From assembly GCF_011764445.1 (NCBI RefSeq), contig NZ_BLPG01000001.1, positions 5,146,001-5,210,000 on the forward strand: a stretch of DNA of 64,000 bases, given 5' to 3'. The notes below the pieces were generated by a model. That model was not told the origin of the DNA. It made no database searches and worked only from the letters and a program-made list of their open reading frames with translations. The translations under genes and the position numbers were made by a program. This DNA comes from Phytohabitans rumicis. Lineage in GTDB: Bacteria > Actinomycetota > Actinomycetes > Mycobacteriales > Micromonosporaceae. Position 1 is the first letter of the stretch. Each line of letters opens with the position of its first letter. Positions 8,079 through 37,362 of this stretch are shown piece after piece.

Positions 8079-8162
8079 CGTCGATCAAGGGCGAACGGTC
8101 GTGCTTTGATCTCCGATCCACGGCCGTTTGCCCTTGATCGACGGGCTTTCCCTTGATCGACG
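8079..8162 (+). repeat. nested GATCAAGG palindrome, copy A1
   Basis: Inner arms CGTCGATCAAGGGCGAACGG (8079-8098) and CCGTTTGCCCTTGATCGACG face each other across the asymmetric core GTGCTTTGATCTCCGATCCA. A second right-hand arm ending CCCTTGATCGACG is present but its left-hand partner is missing. The core reads on the plus strand, as in the other three copies of the window. Confidence 0.9.
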
Positions 8163-8371
8163 CGACTGGGCGCAGGGCCTGCGCGGGCGGCCCGGGGCGC
8201 TCGGTGGACGACAGCAGGGTGCAGGCCACGGCCGGCGCGTTCGTTGGGTGGGGTGCCCGCCGTGAGTTCCCCTCCTGACGGCTACGGGGCGACCGACTCA
8301 CGACCGCGCTCCGCTCCTCATCACCGCACCGCCGTGTGTGCCCCTCTCCGCCGCTCTTCTCCGCGCTCCTC

Positions 8372-8472
8372 CGTCGATCAAGGGCTTCCGCGTCGATCAA
8401 GGGCATACGGTCGTGCTTTGATCTCCCATCCACGACCGTTTGCCCCTGATCGACGGACTTTCCATGATCGAT
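8372..8472 (+). repeat. nested GATCAAGG palindrome, copy A2
   Basis: Two left arms (CGTCGATCAAGG followed by CGTCGATCAAGGGC) and two right arms (TGCCCCTGATCGACG and a decayed CATGATCGATG) surround the core GTGCTTTGATCTCCCATCCA. It is the second copy within 300 bases, in the same orientation as A1. Confidence 0.9.
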
Positions 8473-8526
8473 GTGGTGTGGGGTGGTTAAGGCCGCAGAC
8501 ATGCCGAGCGGACGCGGCCGTCGTGT

Positions 8527-8790
8527 GCCATATGCTTGTCGAGCAGGGCGATATGCCCTCTTTACTCCTTCTGGGAGGGCGCCAATCGACCAACGCGTAG
8601 ATCTTGGTGAATGGGTGTTGCTCCAGCGACGGCTCGACTATCGCAAATATGCCGGAGGGGGCATGGCGATGCGGTGTCGCGTACCACGAGTTTGTCAACG
8701 AGGACGATATATGCCGCTTTTGCCCTCTTGTAGAGGGCTCACCAATAGGCATACGCATAGATCTTGGTAGTTTAGCGTTGCCCCAACGAC
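8527..8790 (+). repeat. two diverged tandem copies of a ~105-base unit
   Basis: Unit 1 (8527-8630) and unit 2 (8682-8790) share order and words: TTGTC, GAxGA/GGGCGATAT, ATGCC, CTCTT, GAGGGC, ACCAA, ACGCxTAGATCTTGGT, GTTGC, CAACGACG-like. They lie in a stretch visibly less GC-rich than the genes around. Unit 2 has a small hairpin GCCCTCT-TGT-AGAGGGC and runs into the long hairpin at 8760-8807; unit 1 has lost the matching arm. Confidence 0.7.
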
Positions 8791-8807
8791 GCTAAACTAC
8801 CAAGATC
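8760..8807. repeat. long hairpin (19-bp stem)
   Basis: GATCTTGGTAGTTTAGCGT pairs with its reverse complement ending at 8807, with only about 10 bases of loop. There is no U-tract after it, so a Rho-independent terminator in the strict sense is not shown; it may be a mobile or recombination-type palindrome. It ends about 100 bases from the stop of the mycosin gene. Confidence 0.85.
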
Positions 8808-8910
8808 CACCAAGATGGTCGCGCAAGTGCGCATATCTTCTATGCGAAGATCATCTACGCGGTGCCGTGCATGGTTCCGGTCGCCGAGATGCTGTTCTGG
8901 TGAAAGGGAT

Positions 8911-10011
8911 CTACTGTTCCACGGTCCCGGGCGCGTTGTGGGAACGGCGTCGGGAGCGAACGAGCAGGATGGTGACGACGATGGCGGCGACCACGAATGC
9001 GGACAGCGCGACGAGGGCGGCGACACCGTTGCCCCGATCGGGCTCGGGTTCCGGTGGCGTAGTGACTGGGGTTGCTGGCGCGCCGAGTGGCGGTACGTCC
9101 GCGGTCAGCGCGGCGACCAAGTTGAGTACGCCGTAGCCGTACTGCTCGTCCCGGCCGGGCGGACCCTTGTCGGTCGCGGTGGCGGTGAGACGATGTATGA
9201 CTTCTTGTGCCGAAAGATCGGGATACTTGCTCCTTACGAGTGCCACAGCGCCGGCCACAATAGCGGTCGCGTTGGAGGTGCCGGTGCCCTTGCTGTACTG
9301 ACCCTTGTAGCTTGTGCTGTAGATGTCCACGCCGGGTGCGGAGATCGCGATCTGCCTGCTGGTCACCGAGACGTCGGCGTGATTACCGTTCCCGTCGGTA
9401 GCCCCAACAGCAAGCGTCCCGTCAAGTGCCGCCGGGAATGTCACCACGAGATCAGTTGGCCGATTGCCGGCGGCCGCCACGATCACCACATCTGCCGCTA
9501 CGGCGGCTGCTACCGCACTCCGCAACCGTGGCGAAGGGCTACCACCAGAAGACACATTGATGATGGTTGCTCCATGGTTCACGGCCCATTCGATGCCTGC
9601 CGCTAGGGTGTCGCTATTATCTTGCCCGGACGATCCTTGGTTGCGCACCGGAAGGATTTTTGCTTCTGGGGCGATCCCGAGCGCACCGGCCTCTGGTCCG
9701 CTCCCATGAGCTGCGATGAGGCCGGCCATTCCGGTGCCGTGAGAATCCATGTCCAGGCGGCCGTCGCCGGAACCCGACACCGCGTCGGTGCCAGGTAGCA
9801 GATTGTCCTTTAGATCAGGGTGCGGATCGACGCCAGTGTCGATGACCGCGACGACCACCCCGTTTCCCCGGCTGTACCTATGTGCTTCTGCAGCGTTGAG
9901 AAAGCGTAGATGCCATTGGTCGTCACGGATCTGATCCGCATGCAAGAAACCGGGTGCCGCGATCGCGCTGATGCAGGCGGCAGCCGCGACGCGCAGATGC
10001 GTTGAACTCAT
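8911..10011 (-). CDS. mycP: mycosin-like S8 subtilase, type VII secretion-associated
   Basis: A 366-residue exported serine protease. An N-terminal signal sequence (about residues 1-25) precedes the subtilase domain with catalytic Asp in VIDTGVDPHPD, His in DSHGTGMAGLIA and Ser in GTGTSNATAIVAG; SNA replaces the more usual SMA after the catalytic Ser. A Pro-rich linker leads to one C-terminal membrane helix (about 328-348) and a basic tail, the mycosin layout. Its ATG overlaps the stop of the PPE-like gene by 4 bases (ATGA). Mycosins process or stabilise ESX systems; no Ecc core genes are in this window, so it may serve a locus elsewhere. Confidence 0.92.
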   Translation of the reverse strand: MSSTHLRVAAAACISAIAAPGFLHADQIRDDQWHLRFLNAAEAHRYSRGNGVVVAVIDTGVDPHPDLKDNLLPGTDAVSGSGDGRLDMDSHGTGMAGLIAAHGSGPEAGALGIAPEAKILPVRNQGSSGQDNSDTLAAGIEWAVNHGATIINVSSGGSPSPRLRSAVAAAVAADVVIVAAAGNRPTDLVVTFPAALDGTLAVGATDGNGNHADVSVTSRQIAISAPGVDIYSTSYKGQYSKGTGTSNATAIVAGAVALVRSKYPDLSAQEVIHRLTATATDKGPPGRDEQYGYGVLNLVAALTADVPPLGAPATPVTTPPEPEPDRGNGVAALVALSAFVVAAIVVTILLVRSRRRSHNAPGTVEQ

Positions 10012-11179
10012 CGGTCTAGCCCCATGGCCGGTCCGGGATCAAAGTGATGGACCTGAGGCGGCGGCACGATGACCGGCGGACCACCCTCGGCCACTTTCCA
10101 CGGGTCTGGGTCCTGGTAGTGGGCGCGGCGGGCCTCCGCTTGACGTTGCTCCGGTGGCCGGCCGCCGAGCATCCCATAGAGAGGCTGCGTACCGGCTTGG
10201 TGACTGCCCGGCGAGCCGAGGCGTTGGGCAGAGGGCGAAATCGTGCCGGCGATCACGCCGCCGATCGGGTTGGCACGAGCGGGTTTCCGCGGATTAGGGG
10301 TCGGACCCAGACTTGGTGGGCCGCCAATGACCCCGCCAGTCGGTAGCGGGCGTGGGCGCCCGCTACCGGCCGTGCCAGGCAAAGGCACGTCAGGCTCGAG
10401 GGGTCGGAGGCTAGGTCCGGTCGGACGCGGTTGGAGGCTGGCGGCAGGCACGATAACGAGAGAAGGGCGGGCTGGCGAGCGCCTGCCCACGGTGCTGCTC
10501 CCGCCAGCCAGAGGAGGAGTCTCAACCGCTCCGGAGGAGTCGGAAGTCGATCGAGGGCCTGTGCCGTATACATCGGGGTCGGCCGGAGCTAGGCCGGTTC
10601 TCGACTGGTACGTCGGGGGTGTTTGATGGCGGCTTCGGCTTCGACCAGGGTGTGGCTGAGCGAGTACATGATGGCGCGCGCCCTCTGGTTCAGCCTCTCC
10701 AACTCCTGCCGCGTCACTGGTGCCGGGCCCACCACTGCAGCTCCCTCGGATCCACTGCTGAACGCCACCAACTCCTCGTACTCGCGTGCCGCCTGGGCCT
10801 TTCCCACGTACTCGTCGTAGAGCGGTTTGAGCTCCAGTCGCGCCGAGGCCAACGCTCCCACCGTCGCCGACAGTGTCGTGTAGTTGGCGGCTGCCACCTC
10901 GTACGTCTGCCGCACGTTCTCGATCAGGAAGTCGAGCCGTCGTACGTACGCGGCCGCGGCGGCGTTGCGGTCGGGTGGCCAGACGTCGACGAGCGACGCC
11001 CGGTATGTCTCCAGGCGGCGCAAATGTGCCCAGGTCAGTTCGTACGTCTTGCGCCAGCCGGACACGAGGCGCCAGTGGTCGTCGCTTTGCTGGTTTTCGA
11101 TGGCCTGCCACATGCCGGGCACGTCGCGCGTGGCCCAACTCGTTCCGGCGCCCGGTACGCCACTGCGTTCCCACGTCAT
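10008..11179 (-). CDS. PPE/WXG-like type VII secretion-associated protein, apparent -1 frameshift
   Basis: About 390 residues if one base is restored. The N-terminal 190 residues (11179 down to about 10620) are helical and Ala/Glu-rich, containing WRKTYELTWAHLRRLETY, as expected of a WXG100/PPE-like helical hairpin. The C-terminal half is Pro/Gly-rich and ends FDPGPAMGLDR, and its stop overlaps the mycP start by 4 bases, so that frame is real. The two halves are in different frames and join at the G5 run 10615-10619: HP.. versus PPTYQSRTG. One missing base explains it. It lies 2 bases after the small helical gene and is probably a secreted or surface substrate. Confidence 0.7.
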
Positions 11180-11181
11180 GG

Positions 11182-11586
11182 TTAGACCTCGGTGGGCGGG
11201 GCGGCCGCGGCGGTGCGGTTGAGTGCCGCCTCCACTTCGGTGGCGCGGGCGGCGGTGAACGCGTCGACGGCGCCGTACTGGGCGCTTACCTCGGCGGCCG
11301 CGACGGCGAGGCCCCAGGTCGCCTCTTGGTAGAAGTAGACCAGGTCCGATGTGTTCAATTGTGACGCCCGGTGTACCCGCAGAAAGTTTGTCAGCTCCTC
11401 GAACGCCGCTGCCGGTCCGGGCAGGTCGACGGCCATGTCATCCGTGACATGGGACAAATGCGGCACATAGTTGTCTAGGACTTCGGTGCGCAGCTTGGCC
11501 GCGAACTCTTCCATGCGGGAGATGTCGGCCTCGATCTGCGCGTATCCGCCCAGCCAGGCAGGTCCTCTGTCGTCCGCCGGTCCCAT
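11182..11586 (-). CDS. small helical protein of the type VII secretion cluster (ESX/WXG-like)
   Basis: A 134-residue, mostly helical, Ala/Glu-rich protein with no signal peptide or membrane helix; a segment EEFAAKLRTEVLDNYVPHL and a later FYQEATWGLAVAAAEV suggest a helical hairpin. The ATG at 11586 has a GGGAGG ribosome site. It ends 2 bases before the PPE-like gene, which in turn overlaps mycP, so the three form one operon. I do not see a clean WXG motif; assignment to the ESX-like group rests on size, helical content and neighbours. Confidence 0.7.
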   Translation of the reverse strand: MGPADDRGPAWLGGYAQIEADISRMEEFAAKLRTEVLDNYVPHLSHVTDDMAVDLPGPAAAFEELTNFLRVHRASQLNTSDLVYFYQEATWGLAVAAAEVSAQYGAVDAFTAARATEVEAALNRTAAAAPPTEV

Positions 11587-11621
11587 GGGACCTCCCGAAC
11601 AAGAGAAGGCACGATGAAGAA

Positions 11622-11797
11622 CTAAAGACTAATCGATGCCCGCCAACCCCGGGGACCCCGGGACGCGCCGACCTGGCCCACCGCGAGGGGGCGCCAACCG
11701 GTGGAGGGTCGGCGCGACGGCGGGACATCACGACGCCTACCAGGGCGGCGAGCTCCTCAGCCGTCGGTGTGCCTCGTACCACCCGAAAGTCCGGCAT
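11622..11797 (-). CDS. accE: acyl-CoA carboxylase epsilon subunit (AccE), apparent -1 frameshift
   Basis: A small gene that is easily missed. From ATG at 11797 it reads MPDFRVVRGTPTAEELAALV, the hallmark of the epsilon subunit that binds and activates AccD5-type carboxyltransferases, and continues to SRWARSARPGVP. If one base is restored in the G/C runs at about 11647-11660 it ends GWRASISL with a TAG at 11622-11624, which matches the family's usual GWRAS-type tail and gives about 58 residues. Read without correction it would run on into the next gene. The kinase gene starts 70 bases away on the other strand; accD is 3.9 kb upstream. Confidence 0.75.
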
Positions 11798-11867
11798 GTG
11801 AGCACAGTACGTCACAGCCGCTGCGCCCGGTCGATTCCCTCTCATGTTCGCCGGGTAAGGTCCTCGG

Positions 11868-12974
11868 GTGTCTGACACACCCCCCGAACTCGTCGCCGAC
11901 CGCTACCGGCTCCTTGAGCCGCTCGGTCAGGGCGGCATGGGACGCGTGTGGAAGGCCCGCGACGAGGTCCTGCACCGCGACGTCGCCATCAAGGAGCTGG
12001 TGCCGCCGCCCGGCCTGACGCCCGAAGAACGCCAGGAAATGCGCGAGCGTTCGCTGCGGGAGGCGCGCGCGATCGCCCGGCTCAACCACTCCAACGTGGT
12101 GCGCATCTTCGACGTGCTGCGCACGGACGGTGACCCGTGGATCGTCATGGAGTATGTCCCGTCCCGTTCGCTGCAGGATGTGCTCGCCTCCGACGGGCCG
12201 GTGACGACGGCGCGCGCCGTGGATATCGGGCTCGGCGTGCTCGGTGCGTTGCGTGCCGCGCACCGGTCGGGGGTTGTGCACCGCGATGTCAAGCCCGGCA
12301 ACGTCCTGCTCGCCGACGACGGCCGCGTCGTGCTCACCGACTTCGGGCTGGCGACCGTGCCCGGCGATCCCAACGTGACGCGCACCGGCCTGGTGCTCGG
12401 CTCGCCGGCGTACATCGCGCCGGAGCGCGCCCGCGAGGGCACCGCCGGGCCGGCAGCCGACATGTGGTCGCTCGGGGCCACGCTCTACGCCGCGACGGAG
12501 GGCCAGTCGCCATACGCGCGGCCCACCGCCATCGGCACGCTGACCGCGCTCGCCAGCGAGCCGGTGCCGGTCCCGCGCCGCGCGGGCCCGCTGAAGGCGG
12601 TGCTCAGCGGCCTGTTGCGCAAGGATCCCGAATCCAGGATCAAGGCGGACGAGGCCGAGCGCCTCTTGCGCCGCGCGGCCGGCCGCCGGCCGCGCGGCAA
12701 TCTTTCTCTCCTGGAAGGGGTACGCCGTCCCACTGCCGCCGGAAGGCGAGAGGGGACGCCCGAGGCCGCTAAGCCGACGACGGTGCTCGCCGAGCCGGAG
12801 CCGGCCACCAAGCTGGTGCCCGCACCGCGCGAACCGGTCGACGAGGCCGTCCCCGTGGTCCCGGGCAAGACCGAGGTAGTCCCCCGGAAGAAGAACCACC
12901 CCCGCCCCCGCACCCACCCCTCCACCCCCACCGCAGGTGTTAGGAGGGGACCCCTCCTATGCAAAAAGCGTTAA
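11868..12974 (+). CDS. serine/threonine protein kinase (kinase half of a sensor kinase)
   Basis: Hanks-type kinase with the complete catalytic set in residues about 12-270: GQGGMGRVW loop, VAIKE lysine, HRDVKPGNVL catalytic loop, DFGLA, and SPAYIAPERARE. A Pro/Glu-rich juxtamembrane linker follows, then the frame runs into a 54-base palindromic repeat and stops at 12972-12974 inside it. The membrane helix and an extracellular domain related to PknB-type sensor modules follow downstream out of frame (see next entry). As written it would make a soluble kinase of 368 residues. Confidence 0.88.
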   Translation: MSDTPPELVADRYRLLEPLGQGGMGRVWKARDEVLHRDVAIKELVPPPGLTPEERQEMRERSLREARAIARLNHSNVVRIFDVLRTDGDPWIVMEYVPSRSLQDVLASDGPVTTARAVDIGLGVLGALRAAHRSGVVHRDVKPGNVLLADDGRVVLTDFGLATVPGDPNVTRTGLVLGSPAYIAPERAREGTAGPAADMWSLGATLYAATEGQSPYARPTAIGTLTALASEPVPVPRRAGPLKAVLSGLLRKDPESRIKADEAERLLRRAAGRRPRGNLSLLEGVRRPTAAGRREGTPEAAKPTTVLAEPEPATKLVPAPREPVDEAVPVVPGKTEVVPRKKNHPRPRTHPSTPTAGVRRGPLLCKKR

Positions 12975-12993
12975 CAAGGTGCCCTTCCTTGCA
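12940..12993. repeat. TTAGGAGGGG palindromic repeat, copy B1, inside the kinase gene
   Basis: 54 bases beginning TTAGGAGGGG and ending CCTTCCTTGCA, with the same centre (ATGCAAAAAGCG) as copy B2 at 58333-58386. In B2 the arms pair well; in B1 the left arm has drifted. It sits exactly between the kinase linker and the membrane helix. Confidence 0.85.
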
Positions 12994-13634
12994 GCCGGGG
13001 CGGTGGTTGTTGTGGTGCTTGCGATGGTTTTGGCTTCCGTGCTGGGGGCGGGGGTGAGGATGACGACGGGGCGCAGCCGGCGTCGACGCCGTCGCAGGCG
13101 AGTAGCGCGCCGGGCGCGACGAGCGCCCCGCCGACCAGCGCGGCGCCGGCGCCGACCCAGTCGCCATCCGCCGGCTCGACGGGCGTGACGTTGCCGGCGG
13201 GCTGGCGGATGTACCAGGACTCCACCGGCTTCTCGGTCGCCGTGCCCAACGGCTGGCGGACGAGTTACGACGGCCGGATGCTCTTCTTCCGCGAGCAGGG
13301 TGGCGAGGGGCGCGTGCTGGGCATCGACCAGACCGACGAGCCCAAGCCGGATCCGGTGGCGGACTGGCGGGAGCAGGAGCGGAATCGCCGCGGCGACTAC
13401 AACAACTACCAGCAGGTGAAGATCGCCGCAGTTGACTACTTCATCAAGGCCGCCGACTGGGAGTGGACGTACACGAGCCGCAACAACAACCGGCTGCACG
13501 TGGTCAACCGCGGCTTCATCACCGCGACCGACAAGGCGTACGCGATCTACTGGTCCACGCTGGACTCCACCTGGAACGACAACCTCGACGAGTTTGCCCT
13601 GATCACGCAGAGTTTCCGCCCGGCCCGCGGCTAG
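12994..13634 (+). CDS. membrane helix and extracellular domain of the kinase gene, out of frame
   Basis: Continuation of the kinase gene. First comes a membrane helix GAVVVVVLAMVLASVLGAG (12997 to about 13053), then, after a shift of frame at the G5 run near 13052-13056, an Ala/Ser/Pro/Thr-rich linker and a domain of about 145 residues from LPAGWRMYQDSTGFSVAVP to FALITQSFRPAR. That last part is in the same frame as the kinase. The distance from kinase start to this stop (1767 bases) is divisible by three, so two compensating shifts separate the parts. An internal start at 13185 could make the domain alone, but without a membrane anchor that would make little sense. Confidence 0.6.
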
Positions 13635-13672
13635 GGGCATGAACGCGGGTCGCGTCGGGTATGTGATTGCTC

Positions 13673-13891
13673 GTGAGTTACCGACAGCATGCGACGAAGC
13701 CGGCCGCCGCGCTCTGGGCCATCACCGGGGTGCTCCTGCTCTATAGCCTGGGCATCACGGTTGTGCTGTTGACCCTCGCGGCGGTCGTAGTGGGGTTCGG
13801 GGCCTGGCAGCTCGTGCGGCGCCACCATCCAAGGCCGGTACGGCGGACGCAGATCAACGTCCGTCGGCAACCGAACGTCGCCAATCGATAA
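13673..13891 (+). CDS. small membrane protein, unknown
   Basis: 72 residues, not recognised. About residues 9-45 form two closely spaced hydrophobic segments (AAALWAITGVLLLYSLGITV and VLLTLAAVVVGFGAWQLV), followed by a strongly basic tail (RRHHPRPVRRTQINVRRQ). GTG at 13673 is the likely start; TTG at 13667 is an alternative. It sits 38 bases after the kinase sensor domain on the same strand. The reading frame and composition look real but no function can be given. Confidence 0.55.
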   Translation: MSYRQHATKPAAALWAITGVLLLYSLGITVVLLTLAAVVVGFGAWQLVRRHHPRPVRRTQINVRRQPNVANR

Positions 13892-13936
13892 CCATGGGTT
13901 GCTGTCATGGCTGCGTTCCGCAACCATGGCGGGATG

Positions 13937-14833: not shown

Positions 14834-14959
14834 AGAATTTCCCCTGTACGTGTTGCGATCTCGGTTGTTTCCTCCAAGGATGGTGGAGTGGCCGTGATCC
14901 TGGGGAGGCGCTACGACCACACCAGAGATTCATAGGCGGGTGGGCTAGGCTCGCCGGCT

Positions 14960-15682: not shown

Positions 15683-17290
<1,608 letters not shown>

Positions 17291-17324
17291 TACTGGATAG
17301 TAACGATCGCTGAGATGCCGACTT

Positions 17325-17531: not shown

Positions 17532-17540
17532 GCTCGACGG

Positions 17541-24714: not shown

Positions 24715-25485
24715 GTGAATCTGCGGAGCCTTGTCTACTCGGTGTACGAGCGGCGGCTGACCGGAAAGCTGGCCGGCAAGCCGGTGCCCAGCCACGTGGG
24801 TGTGATGTGCGACGGCAACCGGCGATGGGCCAAGGAAATGGGGTACGTCGACCCCAACGACGGCCACCGCGTCGGAGCCGCCAAGATCAAGCATGTGCTG
24901 GGCTGGTGTGACCAGGCCGGCATCGGGCACGTGACGCTCTACCTGCTCGCGACGGACAACCTGAGCCGGCCCGCCAGCGAGTTGGACCCCCTCCTGCAGA
25001 TCATCGAAGACCTGGTCACGGAGTTGGCCGAAGAGGGCAACCCGTGGCAGCTCCGGGTCGTCGGCGCGCTCGACATCCTGCCGACCGGGACGGCCACCGC
25101 GCTCAAGGCGGCCCAGGAACGCACGATCGGGCGCACCGGTGGGGCACAGGTCAACCTGGCGGTCGGCTACGGCGGCCGGCGCGAGATCGCCGACGCGGTG
25201 CGCTCGCTGCTGAGCGAGCACGCCGAGGCCGGCGGCACGATCGAGGAACTGGTCGAGGTGCTGGACGTGGAGCACATCGCCGAGCACCTCTACACGCGCG
25301 GCCAGCCCGACCCGGATCTGATCATCCGGACGAGCGGGGAGCAGCGGCTGTCCGGCTTCCTGCTGTGGCAGTCGGCACAGTCCGAGTTCTACTTCTGCGA
25401 CATGAACTGGCCCGACTTCCGCCACATCGACTTCCTCCGCGCGCTGCGCGCCTACGGCCAACGCCAACGCCGCTACGGCGCCTAA
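24715..25485 (+). CDS. cis-prenyl transferase (isoprenyl/undecaprenyl diphosphate synthase family)
   Basis: 256 residues with the family's catalytic DGNRRWAKEMG near residue 30, NLSRPASELDPLL, and the C-terminal DLIIRTSGEQRLSGFLLWQS and AQSEFYFCDMNWPDF blocks. Together with its short size and N-terminal RSLVYSVYERRL it resembles the mycobacterial short-chain enzyme that makes Z,E-farnesyl diphosphate; a decaprenyl or undecaprenyl product is the alternative. GTG at 24715 is the start. The stop TAA is the first base set of a large inverted repeat reaching to the next gene. Confidence 0.92.
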   Translation: MNLRSLVYSVYERRLTGKLAGKPVPSHVGVMCDGNRRWAKEMGYVDPNDGHRVGAAKIKHVLGWCDQAGIGHVTLYLLATDNLSRPASELDPLLQIIEDLVTELAEEGNPWQLRVVGALDILPTGTATALKAAQERTIGRTGGAQVNLAVGYGGRREIADAVRSLLSEHAEAGGTIEELVEVLDVEHIAEHLYTRGQPDPDLIIRTSGEQRLSGFLLWQSAQSEFYFCDMNWPDFRHIDFLRALRAYGQRQRRYGA

Positions 25486-25531
25486 CCCGCCGCGCCCCCT
25501 CTCCGCGCCCCTCTCTGCCCGCCTCTCCACG

Positions 25532-25634
25532 CGTCGATCAAGGATTTGCGCGTCGATCAAGGGCAAACGGCCGTGCTTTGATCTCCAATCCACGACCATT
25601 CGCCCTTGATCGGCGTAGAAATCCTTGATCGACG
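25532..25634 (+). repeat. nested GATCAAGG palindrome, copy A3, extended to both flanking stops
   Basis: Full form: outer arm CGTCGATCAAGGATTTGCG, inner arm CGTCGATCAAGGGC, core GTGCTTTGATCTCCAATCCA, inner right GCCCTTGATCGGCG and outer right TAGAAATCCTTGATCGACG. Outside it, CTAACCCGCCGCGCCCC (from 25483) pairs with GGGGCGCGGCGGGGTTAGG (to about 25672), so the whole palindrome spans the gap and includes the TAA stops of the genes on both sides. Acts likely as a two-way terminator. Confidence 0.9.
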
Positions 25635-25668
25635 CGCGGAGAGACGCGCAGAGAGGGGCGCGGCGGGG

Positions 25669-26505
25669 TTAGGAGCGGAGGGTTTGGAGGGCCTCGGCGA
25701 GGAACTTGCCGAGCGCCTGGGGCGAGTCGAGTGTGAGATCCGCCGCACGGGCGACCTCCTGACCCGTCTCCGGGTTGGCCACCGCGACGCAGATGCCGAA
25801 GAAGTGCGGGTCGGACGCCTCCAGGGCGCGCAGCGCGTCGAACGCCTTGATGTCCGAGACGTCGTCGCCGAAGTACCAGGCGCATCCGGCGGTGCGGGCG
25901 ACCTCGCCGATCACGATGCCCTTGTCGCGGTCGACGGGCGGCTTGAGCTCGATCACCATGCGGCCGGTCTGCACCTTCAGCCCGAGGCGCTCGGCCTCGG
26001 CCCGGCCCCACGCCTCGACCTCGCCGGCGACCTGCGGGTTCGTACGGTAGTGCAGGGCGACGGAGAGCCGCTTGTACTCCACGAGGGCGCCCTCGGGCAG
26101 CTCTTCGCGGGCGCGTTCGGCCAGCTCGGCCATGGCGGGCACCCAGGGCAGGGCGGCCGGCTCGGTGACCGTCTCGCCGGCGCCCCGGCTGTGCTCGAGG
26201 CCGTAGAGGCCGTACAGGTCGACCTCGGGGAGGTGGCCGAACCGTTCGCGCAGGAAGTCGACCGGGCGCGCGGAAACGACCGCGACGCGGCGTACCACCT
26301 CGGTGAGGCCGGCGATGGCCGACATGACCTCGGGTACCGGCTGCACCGCGTTGGGGTCATCACCGACGGGCGCCACGACGCCGTCGAAGTCGAAAAAGAG
26401 CACGCACTCCGCGGCTCGGGCGGTGGTGATCTGCCACGCCTGGTCGGGAGTCAAGGGACGGGACGGGCGTTGGTTAGCCGCGTTTCCCGCATCGTTCGGC
26501 CGCAC
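25669..26505 (-). CDS. otsB: trehalose-6-phosphate phosphatase
   Basis: About 278 residues of the HAD-type trehalose phosphatase. Seen: nucleophile motif FFDFDGVVAPVGDDP, motif II VAVVSARPVDFL, the conserved GLYGLEHSRG, and motif IV GDDVSDIKAFDAL. In most family members the first motif reads DFDGTL; here Val follows the Gly, but the two catalytic Asp residues are intact. I use GTG at 26505; a TTG at 26556 would add 17 unconserved residues. No trehalose-phosphate synthase gene is in the window. Confidence 0.92.
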   Translation of the reverse strand: MRPNDAGNAANQRPSRPLTPDQAWQITTARAAECVLFFDFDGVVAPVGDDPNAVQPVPEVMSAIAGLTEVVRRVAVVSARPVDFLRERFGHLPEVDLYGLYGLEHSRGAGETVTEPAALPWVPAMAELAERAREELPEGALVEYKRLSVALHYRTNPQVAGEVEAWGRAEAERLGLKVQTGRMVIELKPPVDRDKGIVIGEVARTAGCAWYFGDDVSDIKAFDALRALEASDPHFFGICVAVANPETGQEVARAADLTLDSPQALGKFLAEALQTLRS

Positions 26506-30120: not shown

Positions 30121-30335
30121 CGGCGGTAAAAGTCCGTATTCGCCCCGATAAACGGCGTGGCGCAGGTCACAAAGATGGCCTGCGCCTCCCCATCCGCCTC
30201 ACCGTGCGCAATGGTGTCCTGCGGGCACCCGTGCACCACTGGTAACCCTGTGGAGCTGGATGCCTACGGCGTGGAGCAATCGAACCCCCGATGGTTCTCC
30301 GCGCCGTGTCCTTGCCCCGACGAAGGGACCTCTTC
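30121..30335. other. leader region of transglycosylase-like gene
   Basis: 215 bases. GCAGGTCACAAAGATGGCCTGC forms a hairpin-like block with GCAGG and CCTGC arms; the sequence resembles leaders of cell-wall hydrolase genes in length, but I do not see the conserved blocks of the c-di-AMP (ydaO) riboswitch. AAGGGA at about 30323-30328 precedes the GTG at 30336. Confidence 0.35.
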
Positions 30336-31018: not shown

Positions 31019-31093
31019 CTGGCGTTTCGTTCGCCGCGCGGCGGCATGGATGACCCCATAATGGGCAAACTGGTCCATTTCGGGGGAACGCAC

Positions 31094-31891
31094 ATGCGAG
31101 CTTGGCGGTGGATCGCCGCGCTGGTCGCGGCCGCGACGGTGACATCGGCCTGGGCGGGACCCGCCCAGGCCGATCCGGCGCCGGCGCCGCCGATCGAGAT
31201 CGTCGGAGGGGTACGCGCCGAGCCGGGCCAGTTCCCGTGGGCGGTACGCCTCTCGGTGGGCTGTGCCGGTGCGCTCACCGCCCCGCGGGTCGTCCTGACG
31301 GCGGCCCACTGCGTCAAGGGCACCGGCCTCGACAGCAGCATCACGGTGACCGCTGGCTCGGTCGACCAGCACTCGCCGGACGCGATCCGGGTGAAGTCGA
31401 CGTACGTCAAGCGGGCCCCCGGCTTTCGCGACGCCACCCGAGGTGACGACTGGGCGCTGATCCAGCTCGCCGAGGAGCTCGACCTGCCCCTCCTCCCGCG
31501 CGCCGCCGACAGCGCGTACGACCGCGGCACGTTCACCGTCGTGGGTTGGGGTGCGACCCGTGAGGGCGCGACCAGCCAGCAGCGCTACCTGCGCGCGGTG
31601 GACGTGCCGTACGTGTCGGACCGGGCCTGTGGCCGGGCGTACCGCGAGGCCGGCTACGAGTTCGTGTCCCGCGACATGCTGTGCGCGGGTGACACCCGGC
31701 GTGGCGGCATCGACGCCTGCCAGGGCGACTCCGGCGGGCCGATGGTCCACCGCGACGACGCCGGCGAGTGGGTGCAGGTCGGCATCGTGAGCTGGGGGAT
31801 CGGCTGCGCCCGCCGCGACTACCCGGGCGTTTACACGCAGGTTTCCGCGTTCGTTGAGGCGATCGAGCGGGAGACCCGGGCCTTGAGCTAG
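31094..31891 (+). CDS. secreted trypsin-like serine protease (S1 family)
   Basis: 265 residues. Signal peptide (about 1-26, ending GPAQA), short propeptide, then IVGGVRAEPGQFPWAV, whose IVGG would be the new N-terminus after activation. Catalytic triad: His in VVLTAAHCVKG, Asp in DDWALIQLAEE and Ser in CQGDSGGPMVHRD; the Asp six before Ser predicts trypsin-like specificity. Several Cys suggest disulfides. ATG at 31094 has a GGGGGA ribosome site. The rhomboid gene begins 16 bases downstream. Confidence 0.96.
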   Translation: MRAWRWIAALVAAATVTSAWAGPAQADPAPAPPIEIVGGVRAEPGQFPWAVRLSVGCAGALTAPRVVLTAAHCVKGTGLDSSITVTAGSVDQHSPDAIRVKSTYVKRAPGFRDATRGDDWALIQLAEELDLPLLPRAADSAYDRGTFTVVGWGATREGATSQQRYLRAVDVPYVSDRACGRAYREAGYEFVSRDMLCAGDTRRGGIDACQGDSGGPMVHRDDAGEWVQVGIVSWGIGCARRDYPGVYTQVSAFVEAIERETRALS

Positions 31892-31907
31892 CGGGCAATA
31901 CTGGGGC

Positions 31908-32567
31908 GTGGCTTTCGACGGCACCACTCCCAGCGGTGACCCGAACCGCTTCGGCACCGAGGCGTTCTATGCCGCGCTCGGCCGGGCGTTCGTCGCGATG
32001 TGCGCGATCGTGCCGGTGCTCTTCGTCATCGAGGCGTGCGACGGCTGGCTCAACAACTCGTTCGACGCGGCCGGTGGCATCGTGCCGCGCCGCATCAACG
32101 GCCTGGACGGCGTGTTCTTCGCGCCGTTCCTGCACCACGGCTTCGACCACCTCTACAGCAACAGCGTGCCGCTGATCCTGCTGGGCACGTTCGTGCTGGC
32201 CGCGGGCGGGCGCCGGTTCCTCTACGCCACGATCTTCATCGTCCTGGCGAGCGGCCTCGGGGTGTGGTTCACCGGCAGCCCCAACACGGTGGTCGTGGGC
32301 GCCAGCGGGGTCATCTTCGGGTACCTCGGCCTGCTGCTCATGCGCGGCCTGGTGGAGCGGAGCTGGTGGAACCTGGGGGTCGTCGTCCTCGTCGGCCTGC
32401 TCTACGGCTGGCAGCTGCTCGCCGGCATCCTGCCGGGCGATCCGCAGGTGTCCTGGCAGGGCCATCTCTTCGGCTTTCTGGGCGGGCTGGTGGCCGCGAT
32501 CCTCTTCCGCCGGCGGCACCCGCGCTACGACGATTACTCGGCGGGTACGACGTTCACCTTGCCATGA
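31908..32567 (+). CDS. rhomboid family intramembrane serine protease
   Basis: 219 residues with six hydrophobic helices. The catalytic Ser is in VVGASGVIFGYLG (GASG motif) and the catalytic His in WQGHLFGFLGG. The second conserved element FLHHGFDHLYSNSVPL lies before the third helix. Start is GTG at 31908, 16 bases after the secreted protease gene, so they may be co-transcribed. Cleaves membrane proteins within the bilayer; substrate unknown. Confidence 0.94.
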   Translation: MAFDGTTPSGDPNRFGTEAFYAALGRAFVAMCAIVPVLFVIEACDGWLNNSFDAAGGIVPRRINGLDGVFFAPFLHHGFDHLYSNSVPLILLGTFVLAAGGRRFLYATIFIVLASGLGVWFTGSPNTVVVGASGVIFGYLGLLLMRGLVERSWWNLGVVVLVGLLYGWQLLAGILPGDPQVSWQGHLFGFLGGLVAAILFRRRHPRYDDYSAGTTFTLP

Positions 32568-32651
32568 TCGGTGAGACGGTCCTTGCCGCGTACGAGGGAG
32601 TGTGCCTACCGTCGGGTCCTGCACGTCAGACGAAACGATGGCGGTGAGTGA

Positions 32652-33620
32652 ATGCGCGAGATCGATGTCGCGATAGTGGGTGCCGGACCGACCGGTCTCT
32701 TCGCGGCGTACTACGCCGGGTTCCGCGGGCTCTCGGTGGCGCTGATCGACGCGCTTCCGGAGCCGGGTGGGCAGGTCACCGCCATGTACCCGGAGAAGGC
32801 GATCTTCGATGTCGCGGGCTTTCCGGTGATCAAGGGGCGCGACCTGGTGGCCAACCTGGTCGAGCAGGCCGCGCCGTTCAACCCGGAGTACATCCTCGGT
32901 GCTCGCGCCGAAGAGCTGTCCTACGTGGATGACCGGCCGGTGCTGTCGCTCGGCGGTGGCGACAAGCTCCTGTGCGGGGCCGTCATCATCACCGGTGGGC
33001 TGGGCAGTTTCAGCCCCCGCCCGCTGCCCGCCGCGGACGTGTTCGAGGGCGGCGGGCTGGTCTACTTCGTGCCCCGGCTCGCCGAGCTTGAGGGCCACGA
33101 CGTGCTGATCGTCGGCGGCGGCGACTCGGCGTTCGACTGGGCGCTGGCGCTGGAGCCGCTGGCCAAGTCCGTGACGCTCGTGCACCGCCGGGAAAAGTTC
33201 CGCGCGCACGCCTCGACCGTCGCCCGGGTGCAGCAGTTGCCGGTACGCATCGTGGTCAACGCCGAGGTCACGAAGGTCCACGGCGGCGACCGGATCACCG
33301 CCGCCGACATCACCGTCAAGGCCGGCGGCACCGAGACCGTGCCCGTCGACACGGTGGTCGCCGCACTCGGTTTCACGGCGGATCTCGGCCCGCTCGCCGA
33401 GTGGGGCCTGGACCTGGACAAGCGCCACATCCTGGTGGACAGCACCATGGCGACGAACCGCCCGCGAGTGTACGCGGCCGGCGACATCGCGGAGTACCCG
33501 GGCAAGGTCCGGCTGATCGCGACCGGCTTCGGCGAGGCGGCCACCGCCGTCAACAACGCCGCGGTGGCGATCGACCCGTCGGCCCACCTCTTCCCGGGCC
33601 ACTCCTCCGACGCCGGCTGA
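32652..33620 (+). CDS. ferredoxin--NADP(+) reductase-like (TrxR-type) flavoprotein
   Basis: 322 residues with FAD motif VAIVGAGPTGLFAAYYAGF, and NADPH motif VLIVGGGDSAFDWALAL. There is no CxxC between domains, so it is not a thioredoxin reductase but the TrxR-like ferredoxin-NADP reductase type; RVYAAGDIAEYPGKVRLIATG is the second FAD segment. Role: passing electrons between NADPH and ferredoxin or flavodoxin, in the cytoplasm. It ends 5 bases before the histidine kinase gene. Confidence 0.92.
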   Translation: MREIDVAIVGAGPTGLFAAYYAGFRGLSVALIDALPEPGGQVTAMYPEKAIFDVAGFPVIKGRDLVANLVEQAAPFNPEYILGARAEELSYVDDRPVLSLGGGDKLLCGAVIITGGLGSFSPRPLPAADVFEGGGLVYFVPRLAELEGHDVLIVGGGDSAFDWALALEPLAKSVTLVHRREKFRAHASTVARVQQLPVRIVVNAEVTKVHGGDRITAADITVKAGGTETVPVDTVVAALGFTADLGPLAEWGLDLDKRHILVDSTMATNRPRVYAAGDIAEYPGKVRLIATGFGEAATAVNNAAVAIDPSAHLFPGHSSDAG

Positions 33621-33625
33621 CATGC

Positions 33626-34681
33626 ATGCTTCCCCCGCGGCTGCGCCTCTATCTCCTGTGGACGCTGGTGGCGACCGCGTGGTGGACGGCGTTCACGTGG
33701 GTCAGTGCGCTGCGCACCCAGCAGACGCTGCGGGTCAGCGGTGACTTTGCGTCCACATGGGACCTGCTGTACGGCGAACTTGTCGTCGCGCTGCCCTGGG
33801 TGCCGATCACGGTGTTCGCGCTGTGGCTGGCCGACCGGTTTCCTCTCGGCGGCCCGCGCTGGTGGGCGATCCCCGTCCAGCTCGGCGGCCTCGTCGTGGC
33901 GATCGCGGCCCGCGCCGCCGCGCTCGCCGCGCTCAAACCCAAGATGGGCTGGTGGCTGGACTTTGCGACCACGCGCGAGATGCTCGCGTACCACCTGCAG
34001 ACCGACGTGTTCACCTACGTGCTCATCCTTGCGGCGGCCCACGCGGTCTACTACGCCCGCGCGCACCGGCTGCGGGAGCGGCAACTGGCCCGCGCCGAGC
34101 TGGCCGCGCTGCGCGCGCAACTCCAGCCGCACTTCCTCTTCAACGCGCTGAACACGATCGCCGCCCTGGTGCCGGAAGACCCGGACAAGGCCGACCGGAT
34201 GATCATCGGGCTGGCCGGCATGTTGCGGCGCTCGCTGGAGAGCGACGGCCGCCTGGAAGTCCCGCTGCGCACCGAGCTGGAGGTACTCGCGTCCTATCTG
34301 GACATCGAGCAGGCCCGGTTCGAGGATCGGCTCAAGGTGGCCTGGCAGGTGGAGCCGGAGGCGCGGAGCGCGCTCGTACCGCCGCTCGTCCTGCAACCGT
34401 TGGTGGAAAACGCGATCCGGCACGGCCTGTCGCCGCGGGCCGCGGCCGGCACACTGTGGCTCACCGCCGGCCGCCAGGGCGACTGGCTCAAGCTGAGCGT
34501 CGCGGACGACGGGCTCGGCCTGACCCACGGGGCGCTCCGCGATGGGATCGGGCTGGCCAACACGAGGGCCCGCCTGCGCCAGCTCTACGGCGACCGCCAC
34601 GAATTCACCATCGCACCGCGGGACGGCGGGGGAGTCGACGCCACCATTTCGGTGCCGTACCGGACAGGGGACCGGCGATGA
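33626..34681 (+). CDS. LytS-type membrane sensor histidine kinase
   Basis: 351 residues. Four hydrophobic helices span about residues 10-140. Then comes the histidine box LQPHFLFNALNTIAALVPE, N box LVENAIRHGLSPRA, and G box DGIGLANTRARLRQLYG, the His_kinase/HATPase layout of the LytS/YehU type. Its stop overlaps the start of the response regulator gene (ATGA), so the two are made together. ATG at 33626 begins right at the first helix. Confidence 0.92.
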   Translation: MLPPRLRLYLLWTLVATAWWTAFTWVSALRTQQTLRVSGDFASTWDLLYGELVVALPWVPITVFALWLADRFPLGGPRWWAIPVQLGGLVVAIAARAAALAALKPKMGWWLDFATTREMLAYHLQTDVFTYVLILAAAHAVYYARAHRLRERQLARAELAALRAQLQPHFLFNALNTIAALVPEDPDKADRMIIGLAGMLRRSLESDGRLEVPLRTELEVLASYLDIEQARFEDRLKVAWQVEPEARSALVPPLVLQPLVENAIRHGLSPRAAAGTLWLTAGRQGDWLKLSVADDGLGLTHGALRDGIGLANTRARLRQLYGDRHEFTIAPRDGGGVDATISVPYRTGDRR

Positions 34682-35397
34682 TCCGTACCCTCATCGTGGA
34701 CGACGAACCGCCGGCCCGCCGGCGCCTGCGGTCCCTGCTCGCCGAACGGTCCGATGTGGAGGTTGTCGGCGAGTACGGCACGGCCCGCGCGGCCGTGGCG
34801 GCCATCGAGAAGACCAGGCCCGATCTGGTGTTCCTCGACGTGCAGATGCCGGAGGGCGACGGCTTCGGCGTCGTGGAGGCCCTCGGCGGTGAGCACGCGC
34901 CGGCGATCGTGTTCGTGACGGCGTTCAGCGAGCACGCGGTGCGGGCCTTCGACGTGCGCGCGGTCGACTACCTGATGAAGCCCTTCGCCCGGGAACGACT
35001 GTGGGCGGCCCTGGACCGGGTGCGCGACCAGCTCCCGGACGCCACGCCTTCGGCGGTCGGGCCGCTGCGGCGGCTGCCCGTCGATGTCGGACGGCGCATC
35101 CGGCTCGTCGACACGGACCACATCGACTACCTGCGCGCCGAGGGAAACTACGTTCGGGTGTACGTCGGCAGCCAGTCCTACCTGGTCCGGGAGACCCTGA
35201 CCGGGCTGGCCGGGCGGCTCGACCCGGACCAGTTCCTGCGCGTGCACCGATCGCTGGTCGTACGGCTGGACCGGGTCCGCGAGATCGAGACGCTCGACCA
35301 TGGTGAATTCGTGCTGCGGCTGGACGGCGGCACCGCGCTCATCACCGGTCGCAGCTTCCGCGAGCCGGTGCGGCTGGCGCTCGGCCTGTCCCGCTGA
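34678..35397 (+). CDS. LytR/AlgR-type response regulator (REC + LytTR)
   Basis: 239 residues: REC domain with phosphorylated Asp in LVFLDVQMPEGDGF, conserved Thr in VFVTAFSEHAV and Lys in DYLMKPFARE, then a LytTR DNA-binding domain from IRLVDTDHIDYLRAEGNYVRV to SLVVRLDRVREIE. Partner of the histidine kinase encoded just upstream and overlapping. Targets unknown; LytTR proteins bind paired direct repeats. Confidence 0.95.
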   Translation: MIRTLIVDDEPPARRRLRSLLAERSDVEVVGEYGTARAAVAAIEKTRPDLVFLDVQMPEGDGFGVVEALGGEHAPAIVFVTAFSEHAVRAFDVRAVDYLMKPFARERLWAALDRVRDQLPDATPSAVGPLRRLPVDVGRRIRLVDTDHIDYLRAEGNYVRVYVGSQSYLVRETLTGLAGRLDPDQFLRVHRSLVVRLDRVREIETLDHGEFVLRLDGGTALITGRSFREPVRLALGLSR

Positions 35398-35493
35398 CGC
35401 TCCGGTTCGTCCGCGCCGTCCGCCGGCTCGTCCCATCGCGCCCCGATGCGACCCGGCCCGCCCGTAGCGTTGCTGGTGCACGCACTTGGGAGA

Positions 35494-35531
35494 GATCGGG
35501 CCGGCGGCCGAGGGCAGCCGCCGGCCCGATC
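35494..35531. terminator. GC hairpin between convergent genes
   Basis: GATCGGGCCGGCGGC at 35494-35508 pairs perfectly with its reverse complement at 35517-35531 around an eight-base loop. It sits between the convergent response regulator and glpX genes and would work for both. Confidence 0.85.
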
Positions 35532-35545
35532 GGTGTGTGCTTCTC

Positions 35546-36571
35546 CTATGCCAGCTCGGCGAGCGGGCGGCCATCGAAGTCGACCGCCGAGTAGCGGGCG
35601 AGCTTCTCCAACCGGTGGTACGAGTCGATGACCCGGATCGTGCCGCTCTTGGACCGCATGACGATCGACTGCGTGAACGCCCCGCCGGCCCGGTACCGCA
35701 CGCCCTTGAGCAGGTCACCGGTGGTGATGCCGGTGGCGACGAAGAAGCAGTTGTCGCCGGTCACCAGGTCGTCGGTGGTGAGCACCCGGTCGAGGTCGTG
35801 CCCCGCGGCGAGCGCCTTTTCCCGTTCGGCGGCGTCGCGTGGCCACAGCTTCGCCTGCATCGCGCCGCCCATGCACTTGAGCGCGCAGGCGGCCGTGATG
35901 CCTTCCGGCGTACCGCCGACGCCGACCAGCACGTCCACATCGGACTGTTCGCTCGCGGCGGAGATGGCGCCGGCGATGTCGCCGTCGGAGATGAAGCGGA
36001 TCCGGGCGCCGGCCTGGCGTACCTCCCGGACCAGTTGCTCGTGCCGCGGGCGGTCCAGGATGCAGACCGTCACGTCGGAGACGCCGGAGTTCTTGACCTT
36101 CGCGACGCGGCGCAGATTTTCCGTCACGCCGGCGTTGATGTCGATGACGTCCGCGCAGTCGGGGCCGACCGCGAGCTTTTCCATGTAGAAGACCGCGCTC
36201 GGGTCGAACATCGCGCCGCGCTCGGCCACGGCCAGTACGGCGAGCGCGTTCGGCATACCCTTGCTCATCAGCGTGGTGCCGTCGATGGGGTCGACGGCGA
36301 CGTCCACCTCGGGTCCGGTCCCGTCGCCGACCTCTTCGCCGTTGAAGAGCATCGGGGCGTTGTCCTTCTCACCCTCGCCGATGACCACCACGCCGCGCAT
36401 CTGGATCGAGTTGATCAGCTTGCGCATGGCGTCGACTGCGGCCCCGTCGCCGCCCTCCTTGTCGCCGCGGCCGACCCAGCGACCGGCGGCCATCGCGGCG
36501 GCCTCGGTGACCCGGACCAGGTCCAGGGCGAGGTTGCGGTCGAGGTCCTGCGGGATACGAGCCTCGGTCAT
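35546..36571 (-). CDS. glpX: class II fructose-1,6-bisphosphatase
   Basis: 341 residues that hydrolyse fructose-1,6-bisphosphate to fructose-6-phosphate in gluconeogenesis. Seen: metal-binding [30 protein letters not shown], and [20 protein letters not shown]. The length fits the class II family. Divergent from the DUF4245 gene across about 100 bases; glpX beside DUF4245, xse genes and ispH is a common actinobacterial order. Confidence 0.97.
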
Positions 36572-36673
36572 GACGGGTCCTCCTCGCGACGCTGCGGGGC
36601 GCTGGCTTGCCTAAATCCTGTCATGATCGAGGGGTGAACGCCCGTTCGGGGCGAGTACTGGGATGATGGTTAC

Positions 36674-37213
36674 GTGGATCAGCAGACCGTCGCACCGCCG
36701 CCGTCGACCAACACGCGCCGCCCGCGCGACATGGTGCTGTCGATGGCCGTGCTTCTCGTACCGGTCCTGATCATCGTGCTGATCTACCGCGTCGTGCAGG
36801 GCGGCGACCAACCGGTCAAGGTCGACACCGCGCCCGCCCTCGACCAGGCGCGCTCCGTGGGCGCGTTCCCAGTGAGCGAGCCCTCCGGGCTCGACGACGG
36901 CTGGCGGCCCATCAGCGCGACATTCCAGACCGCCGACGGGGGCAAGGTCCTGCGCATCGGGTACGTCACGCCGTCGGGCGCCGGGGTGCAACTCGTGCAG
37001 AGCGACGTACCGGCCGAGCGGCTGCTGCCGGCGGAGCTGACCGGGAGCGGCCAGCCGCGCGGGGCGACCGACATCGCGGGGCAGAGCTGGCAGCGCTACA
37101 CCGCCCGCCCAGGTGAGCAGGCGCTGGTGCTCCTGCAACCCGACCGCACCGTGATCGTCGTAGGCAGCGCCGAGGAAACCGAACTCCGCATCTTGGCCAC
37201 CGCCGTCACCTAA
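36674..37213 (+). CDS. DUF4245 membrane-anchored protein
   Basis: 179 residues: one N-terminal helix (DMVLSMAVLLVPVLIIVLIY) and an extracytoplasmic domain with GWRPISATFQTADGGKVLRI and the C-terminal LLQPDRTVIVVGSAEETELR, the DUF4245 pattern. Function unknown; usually beside glpX and exonuclease VII genes in actinobacteria, as here. GTG at 36674 is the start. The stop is followed by the fourth copy of the nested palindrome. Confidence 0.88.
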   Translation: MDQQTVAPPPSTNTRRPRDMVLSMAVLLVPVLIIVLIYRVVQGGDQPVKVDTAPALDQARSVGAFPVSEPSGLDDGWRPISATFQTADGGKVLRIGYVTPSGAGVQLVQSDVPAERLLPAELTGSGQPRGATDIAGQSWQRYTARPGEQALVLLQPDRTVIVVGSAEETELRILATAVT

Positions 37214-37257
37214 CCCGCCGCCCCGATCAGTGCCCGCCGCGCCGACCAAGCCCCGTC

Positions 37258-37362
37258 GCGCCGATCAAGGCTTTCTGCGTCGATCAAGGGCGAATGGCTG
37301 TGCTTTGATCTCCGATCCACGACCGTTTGCCCTTGATCGACGTAGAAAGCCTTGATCGACGC
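37258..37362 (+). repeat. nested GATCAAGG palindrome, copy A4
   Basis: Complete form with outer arm GCCGATCAAGGCTTTCTGCG, inner arm CGTCGATCAAGGGC, core GTGCTTTGATCTCCGATCCA, right inner GCCCTTGATCGACG and right outer TAGAAAGCCTTGATCGACG. The spacer CTTTCT on one side matches AGAAAG on the other, while in copy A3 ATTT matches AAAT: the arms changed together. It lies between convergent DUF4245 and xseB stops. Confidence 0.92.

What the first reader, a model, noticed from the sequence alone, without database searches (positions are those of the whole stretch)
8079..37362. Four copies of a nested palindrome with compensating arm changes and one shared orientation
Copies A1-A4 share arms CGTCGATCAAGG(GC) and an asymmetric core GTGCTTTGATCTCC-N-ATCCA. 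In A3 the outer spacer ATTT faces AAAT; in A4 CTTTCT faces AGAAAG. Such paired changes point to selection on folding. All four cores read on the plus strand. The core itself is not symmetric, unlike a plain terminator, and could be a recognition site.
Basis: partly seen in the sequence, partly recalled or inferred. Interest (0 to 1): 0.75.

Follow-up and report, generated by a model that had tools for sequence, protein, structure and literature searches.

The report
Gene-end hairpin repeat family, Micromonosporaceae
The four hairpins belong to a family of several hundred very similar DNA hairpins scattered between genes of one actinobacterium, often just behind genes, with diverged cousins in related genera; they resemble known repetitive extragenic palindromes but are larger, have an asymmetric tip, and lack the usual partner enzyme.

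Summary
The four hairpins are real. They belong to a genome-wide family: 286 copies by a strict arm pattern, 480 by a looser one. The host is probably Phytohabitans rumicis (inferred).

Both headline points fail within this genome. Arms show no covariation between copies, and strands are balanced, 236 to 244. Between eight genomes of six genera, however, the arms change in pairs (z 12.1 over 36 copies; 4.3 on one consensus per genome).

Orientation follows local context. Of 49 listed neighbour pairs within 2.5 kb, 35 are '+ then -' and none '- then +'; relative G001 gives 8 to 0. Copies favour convergent gene ends, 5' side towards a gene, behind a C-rich tract. A3 is absent at the orthologous site in five relatives, A4 in one. 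No Y1/RAYT transposase was found in eight genomes.

Best reading: a REP-like, lineage-amplified mobile palindrome accepted at gene 3' ends, probably acting as an RNA 3'-end hairpin. The mobility enzyme is unknown; the termination role is inferred.

The parts
8079..8143 (+). Copy A1: inner palindrome (25-bp arms, 15-nt asymmetric loop with TTTGATCTCC); no 5' outer arm. Between a maf-like gene and a subtilase gene, both on -; the element lies antisense to both.
8151..8162 (+). A1 3' outer box CCTTGATCGACG, read on the + strand
8372..8473 (+). Copy A2: nested palindrome with an imperfect 3' outer arm, same intergenic region as A1
25532..25634 (+). Copy A3: full nested palindrome between convergent genes (undecaprenyl-diphosphate-synthase-like, +; trehalose-phosphatase-like, -). 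Absent at the orthologous site in the five same-genus genomes searched.
25523..25643 (.). A3 with locus-specific flanking arms that lengthen the palindrome (highest flank complementarity of 158 copies)
37259..37361 (+). Copy A4: full nested palindrome between convergent genes (DUF4245, +; exonuclease VII small subunit, -). Absent in G001 at the orthologous site; the other four relatives have several kb of other DNA there.
25486..25531 (+). C-rich, G-poor tract between the stop codon and A3, typical of the family's 5' flank

Best explanation
The elements are copies of a REP-like repetitive extragenic palindrome: about 65-103 bp, nested stems, an asymmetric tip (TTYGATCTC) and a nearly constant second box on the 3' side. 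It has spread in this lineage as non-autonomous mobile DNA and is kept or targeted at gene 3' ends, mainly between convergent genes, with its 5' side towards the gene. Shown: copy number, structure, placement, pair rule, empty sites in relatives, paired arm changes between genomes, no PF01797 (Y1/RAYT) match. Inferred: that an unknown trans-acting enzyme moves it, that the asymmetric tip is what is recognised, and that the C-rich tract followed by a very stable hairpin acts at the RNA level as a 3'-end element (Rho-type termination plus protection of the RNA end), which is why insertions there are tolerated or favoured.
For: Copies: 286 strict, 480 loose, reversed control pattern 0. G001 holds 211 by the loose pattern and six other genomes hold 1-11 (8 of 350 genomes of the family incl. 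own, 6 of 44 genera). Placement: 132 of 146 copies intergenic; an element is present in 54 of 73 convergent, 55 of 196 co-directional and 11 of 81 divergent regions (loci were chosen for having copies). Orientation: in convergent contexts 46 of 57 sit nearer the gene on their 5' side (p 3e-6); single copies in co-directional contexts 30 sense, 11 antisense (p 0.004); in G001 the 5'-side gene is sense in 19 of 22. Pair rule 35:0 (270 positions, the listing of 286 being capped at 269 plus one variant) and 8:0. C-rich 5' flank: left skew below right in 149 of 157 copies and in 19 of 20 copies of six other genomes. Insertion: A3 site empty in 5 of 5 relatives (33-81 bp between the aligned parts against 183), A4 site empty in G001. 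3' outer box in 155 of 158 copies, 5' outer box in 71 of 158. Paired changes between genomes.
Against: No mobility enzyme was identified; target duplications were not tested formally, and flanks at the A3 empty sites do not align. The C-rich flank is equally strong where the 5' gene is antisense (45 copies, skew -0.34, against 108 sense, -0.32), so it is not simply tied to the upstream gene's 3' end; in G001 the 3' flank is not G-rich (26 copies, left -0.27, right -0.03). Pairs obey the + - rule also in co-directional (7) and divergent (2) regions of the 19 read (10 convergent), so transcription alone does not explain it (my count). A1 and A2 lie antisense to both neighbours, and over all copies 23 of 63 co-directional placements are antisense. 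No U-tract terminator was called at A3, the only copy scanned. At least two sites are occupied in both G000 and G001 by species-specific versions (L065/L218, L081/L226), which simple recent insertion does not predict.
Confidence: 0.55

Rival explanations
1. Purely selfish REP-like DNA: dispersed by an unknown enzyme, merely tolerated at gene ends because insertions elsewhere are lost; no function for the host.
For: Copy number differs sharply among six same-genus genomes (480, 211, 0, 0, 0, 0 by the loose pattern); empty sites; C-rich 5' flank and pair rule hold whatever the gene orientation; antisense copies such as A1 and A2 exist.
Against: Sense bias and closeness to stop codons on the 5' side; stem kept through paired changes between genomes; at least two sites shared by two species.
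Confidence: 0.3
2. A genome-specific transcription terminator cassette under selection, like the amplified terminator motif described in Mycobacterium tuberculosis (TRIT, recalled), spread by conversion rather than transposition.
For: Position after stop codons, convergent preference, very stable hairpin, C-rich upstream tract, shared sites with species-specific arms.
Against: Empty orthologous sites in relatives (and L064, L066, L067); no U-tract at the one copy scanned; copies upstream of genes exist.
Confidence: 0.25
3. A binding site for a chromosome-organising or repair protein that reads the repeated GATCWAGG boxes and the TTYGATCTC tip as duplex DNA; the palindrome is only dyad symmetry of the site.
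For: Within the genome the boxes are far more constant than the stem interior, and what is kept is sequence rather than pairing.
Against: Paired changes in the stem interior between genomes; patchy presence (8 of 350 genomes) is odd for a core chromosome function; no replication-strand bias.
Confidence: 0.12
4. Paired arm changes between genomes reflect template-switch correction of one arm by the other during replication, with no selection on structure.
For: Such correction is a known mutational route at quasi-palindromes (recalled); arms within G032 already differ among copies yet pair (11 copies, z 5.4).
Against: In G000 unpaired combinations are frequent and unrelated between arms, so correction is not fast there.
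Confidence: 0.25

Closest known systems
GTAG-tagged REPs and BIMEs mobilised by RAYT (Di Nocera et al. 2013, PMC3733652: parts 1-3 of 8 and passages read; Nunvar et al. 2010, PMC2817692: search listing only)
   Same: High-copy extragenic palindromes with distinct ends, next to 3' ends of genes, between convergent and co-directional genes, often in inverted pairs, different in number between related genomes.
   Different: REPs are 20-40 bp with stems of 5-13 bp and an unpaired GTAG end, and in two species shown most lie under 20 bp from the gene ends in convergent regions; here 65-103 bp, 25-bp inner stem plus outer box, no GTAG, typically 50-120 bp behind the stop, no PF01797 match in eight genomes.
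CGTC-tagged REPs (same paper)
   Same: Many copies here begin with CGTC; CGTC REPs are mostly head-to-head dimers and have no dedicated transposase known.
   Different: In CGTC REPs the tag is unpaired, stems 8-9 bp, loops 4-5 nt with an unpaired, mostly CCA-like tail; here CGTC is part of the paired arm and the loop is 15 nt.
MITEs (as described in the same paper's introduction)
   Same: 70-300 bp, non-coding, inverted repeats at the ends, often next to genes.
   Different: No parent insertion sequence or target duplication identified; the whole element is one hairpin.
TRIT, an amplified terminator motif of M. tuberculosis (recalled; its paper was not among the 8 of 17 listed)
   Same: Many conserved hairpin copies at gene 3' ends in an actinobacterium (recalled).
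   Different: No sequence comparison with TRIT was made; no Rfam family matched the window; termination not tested here.

Membership tests
GTAG REP / RAYT system | Y1 (PF01797) RAYT gene in the genome | tested here: not met
   0 of 8 genomes incl. G000, G001, G014, G015 (control rings in 5 of 14 known genomes); own genome 96% complete
GTAG REP / RAYT system | Unpaired GTAG at one end, 20-40 bp | tested here: not met
   Element 65-103 bp, ends CGTC/CGRCG, no GTAG in the consensus
CGTC REP | Unpaired CGTC tag, 8-9 bp stem, 4-5 nt loop, unpaired mostly CCA-like tail | tested here: not met
   CGTC pairs with GACG/GGCG in a 25-bp stem, 15-nt loop
Repetitive extragenic palindromes in the broad sense | High copy, extragenic, palindromic, preferring gene 3' ends and convergent regions | tested here: met
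MITE | Target-site duplication and an insertion sequence with matching ends | tested here: inconclusive
   Empty sites found, but flanks do not align base by base; no formal duplication test; no transposase family other than PF01797 was searched
Classical intrinsic terminator | GC-rich hairpin followed by a run of U | tested here: not met
   No call at 25450-25700, the only copy scanned; in 125 copies an A-rich spacer and CCTTGATC follow the stem
Rho-dependent terminator | C-rich, G-poor RNA tract upstream of the 3' end; Rho dependence | tested here: inconclusive
   C-rich tract present over about 120 bp, also where no sense gene precedes; Rho dependence not testable
Known Rfam family | Match at gathering score | tested here: not met
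   0 matches in the window

The most novel reading that the evidence does not exclude
A new class of mobile hairpin, spread across several Micromonosporaceae genera, whose unknown mobility enzyme reads the conserved asymmetric tip TTYGATCTC and inserts the element at the tips of existing gene-end hairpins in one polarity. Its stems evolve in concert within each species, so that even shared sites carry species-specific arms, implying a co-evolving recognition protein.
Probability: 0.2. Interest if true: 0.75.

Novelty: new variant of a known kind. Interest (0 to 1): 0.5.

Why it matters
Tagged REPs were described mainly in Proteobacteria and a few other phyla (PMC3733652; the term 'actinobacteri' does not occur in its main text). 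A 2025 survey (PMC12306157, passages only) does tabulate palindrome counts for three Actinomycetota genomes, so extragenic palindromes in this phylum are not new in themselves. A family with about 480 copies in one genome and 211 diverged copies in a relative, a strict head-to-head rule and no RAYT gives a clean system for two open questions: what moves REP-like DNA that lacks a tyrosine transposase, and whether such hairpins shape 3' ends of transcripts in high-GC bacteria. Paired arm changes between genomes together with none inside one genome make it a useful test case for telling selection on folding from arm-to-arm correction.

Tried and rejected
Compensating changes inside the genome: rejected. 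Replication-oriented placement: rejected. RAYT partner: none by PF01797. tRNA cargo between paired copies: ARAGORN on 19 loci found one tRNA, outside the paired interval. Small-gene cargo: of the 19 paired intervals read, L091 and L104 hold a called gene; many of the intervals printed hold other palindromes instead. Insertion into locus-specific hairpins as a general rule: in this genome only 6 of 158 copies exceed the 99% point of swapped flanks, although 22 copies of six other genomes show it on average (permutation p 0.0005; 3 of 22 above the 95% point); left open. 'C-rich left, G-rich right' as a strand signal: by itself it is symmetric under reverse complement; only its unequal strength (left -0.29 to -0.39 over the first 100 bp, right +0.10 to +0.23) and the tandem repeats on the left (20% against 8%) are asymmetric. 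Other palindrome families show a weaker version (30 of 41). Alignment A2 mixed orientations, because loci of minus-strand hits were not turned; it was not used for any count. Papers: searches showed no report of this family in their listings; the library misses most subscription journals.

Limits: genes were called with a home-made codon-usage caller, which missed the subtilase gene at 8911-10011, so gene-context counts are approximate. The loci were chosen for bearing copies with exact strict 5' arms, so 5' arm conservation is partly by selection; the 3' half was not selected. The pattern itself requires TTYGATCTC and most of the outer ten bases, so it cannot prove their conservation. Copies at neighbouring sites are not independent in the binomial tests. 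Shared versus empty sites between G000 and G001 rest on few loci: of five mapped, L064, L066 and L067 are empty, L065 is occupied, and L082 has an element in the opposite orientation (not examined further); with A3 and A4 this makes five empty of seven. L141/L229 and L123/L217 also matched but were not settled.
Full report
Observation. A covariance model finds all four, at 8056-8162, 8372-8473, 25532-25634 and 37259-37361, plus one weak hit at 53825-53882 (E 0.0008), a different palindrome. A1 lacks the 5' outer arm. Folding is far better than in shuffles for every copy, as RNA and as DNA. The window lies in a 10.7-Mb genome of three contigs. Sizes and contig counts of G000, G002, G003 and G004 match those published for Phytohabitans rumicis (10.71 Mb, three scaffolds), P. 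houttuyneae (11.34, five), P. suffuscus (10.15, one) and P. flavus (9.61, one) in PMC7692728 (passages read). The host is therefore probably P. rumicis; this is an inference.

The family. With exact 5' arms the genome holds 88 + 81 + 117 = 286 copies; with a looser pattern 236 + 244 = 480, the reversed control pattern giving 0 (nested second boxes may be counted twice). The element is: an optional 5' outer box CGTCGATCAAGG (71 of 158 copies), a 7-nt spacer, a 25-bp inner arm, a 15-nt loop starting CTTTGATCTC in most copies, the 3' inner arm, an A-rich 7-nt spacer, and a 3' outer box CCTTGATCGRCG (155 of 158). So the element is asymmetric in the tip and in its boxes.

No paired changes inside the genome. 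Over 125 distinct copies the inner arm has 2980 paired cells against 2985.6 expected under shuffling (z -1.0). Over 61 copies with the 5' outer arm, z is +1.0; over 64 without it +0.4. On 56 copies all five measures sit at the shuffle mean, although the true register exceeds slid registers. Pair 48/72 has the full C-G combination in only 4 of 125 copies.

Paired changes between genomes. G015, G075, G032, G101, G076 and G339 carry GATCTAGGGC or GATCAAGGGC arms with different interiors. Pairing the outer 20 positions over 36 copies gives 631 of 720 paired cells against 543 expected (z 12.1); without G000 and G001 z is 9.4 (28 copies); in G032 alone 5.4 (11 copies); with one consensus per genome 4.3 (8 rows). 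Positions 1-4 and 6-10 are fixed by the search pattern, so the signal comes from pairs 5 and 11-20. Relatedness is not modelled, and arm-to-arm correction is an alternative to selection. The tip TTYGATCTC was part of that pattern; found without it, by the covariance model, 4 of 5 distinct G015 copies have TTGATCTCC or its reverse complement, while the six G014 copies shown and the single loci of G002 and G004 do not.

Distribution. 8 of 350 genomes of the family, own included (6 of 44 genera), and 1 of 296 sampled across the phylum (own only) match the loose pattern. Four same-genus genomes (G002-G005) have none by this pattern; the model finds two overlapping hits each in G002 and G004.

Placement and orientation. 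132 of 146 copies in 120 loci are intergenic. Among intergenic regions of at least 60 bp in the loci and window held, an element is present in 54 of 73 convergent, 55 of 196 co-directional and 11 of 81 divergent (loci were chosen for having copies, so only the contrast between types counts). In convergent regions the copy is nearer the gene on its 5' side in 46 of 57 (p 3e-6; singles 31 of 40); single copies in co-directional regions are sense in 30 and antisense in 11 (p 0.004; all copies 40 and 23, p 0.04). A1 and A2 are antisense examples. Neighbour pairs within 2.5 kb, among 270 listed positions: 35 '+ -', 0 '- +', 8 '- -', 6 '+ +'; G001, 43 copies: 8, 0, 0, 2. Of 19 '+ -' pairs whose genes I read, 10 lie between convergent, 7 between co-directional and 2 between divergent genes (my count), so the rule is not only a consequence of gene direction. 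There is no replication-strand bias.

Flanks. The 5' flank is C-rich (skew -0.32 where the 5' gene is sense, -0.34 where it is antisense), the 3' flank G-rich (+0.20, +0.18); controls behind stop codons are at zero (123 and 30 stretches). In 149 of 157 copies left skew is below right; the C tract extends over about 120 bp, the G tract is weaker. Other palindrome families show it weakly (30 of 41), convergent regions without an element in 9 of 14. The same holds in 19 of 20 copies of six other genomes. In G001 the left flank is C-rich (-0.27) but the right is not G-rich (-0.03; 26 copies). Left flanks carry short tandem repeats in 20% of copies, right flanks in 8%, controls in 0%. Locus-specific complementarity of the flanks is significant in six other genomes (22 copies, p 0.0005; one case 26 of 26 bases) and weak here (6 of 158 above the 99% point; A3 is the strongest).

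Gain and sharing. At A3 all five same-genus genomes searched have the two flanking genes with 33-81 bp between the aligned parts, against 183 bp here. At A4 G001 has about 30 bp where this genome has about 254; the other four relatives have several kb of other DNA there. Of five more loci mapped to G001, three are empty, one is occupied at the same place and orientation by the G001 version (L065/L218) and one has an element in the opposite orientation (L082, not examined further). L081/L226 is also occupied in both (that G001 locus was chosen for having a copy). So there is both gain or loss and in-place divergence.

Mechanism. Shown: an amplified, patchy, REP-like palindrome with a strict local polarity, mostly behind genes, with a C-rich lead-in. 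Inferred: mobility in trans by an enzyme not yet known (PF01797 absent from eight genomes), and action at the RNA 3' end. A C-rich, G-poor lead-in of about 100 nt is what Rho-dependent ends look like (recalled), but the same lead-in exists where no sense gene precedes, so it may instead be a target preference or a product of insertion.

Comparison. The genomic behaviour (behind genes, convergent regions, inverted dimers, variation between relatives, some families inside larger palindromes, CGTC REPs without a transposase) is that described for REPs in PMC3733652 (parts 1-3 of 8 and passages read). The defining tags and sizes of GTAG and CGTC REPs are not met. It works like a REP; it is not a member of either tagged super-family by the tests made. 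I therefore rate it a new variant of a known kind.

Noticed in passing
window 8760-8807, 35494-35531, 53826-53881, 61211-61266: Other strong intergenic palindromes. In the 120 loci and window, 169 hairpins (three loci overlap the window, so some count twice) fall into 16 sequence clusters, seven with three or more members; by reading, those at 53826 and 61211 share long words with recurring families.
   Followed up: partly
L037, L040, L058, L061 and other loci, beside or between copies: Non-coding islands (185-1244 bp between paired copies) holding several different palindrome families, some nested in each other.
   Followed up: partly
L120 2478-2931; L004 1453-1749: Tandem multiplication of the element with its flank, at about 175 bp (three copies) and 194 bp (two copies).
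   Followed up: no
L160, L165, L171, L175, L179, L183 (G014): Another genus carries nearly perfect palindromes with arms of about 25 bases or more that contain TTGATCAAGGG but lack the TTYGATCTC tip.
   Followed up: no
L219, L225-L228, L233 (G001): Several contigs of the draft genome end within a few hundred bases of a copy, as if the repeat had broken the assembly.
   Followed up: no
G000 C1 about 0.85-1.75 Mb and 6.95-7.65 Mb: Long stretches without strict copies in the list, while copies are frequent over most of the rest.
   Followed up: no
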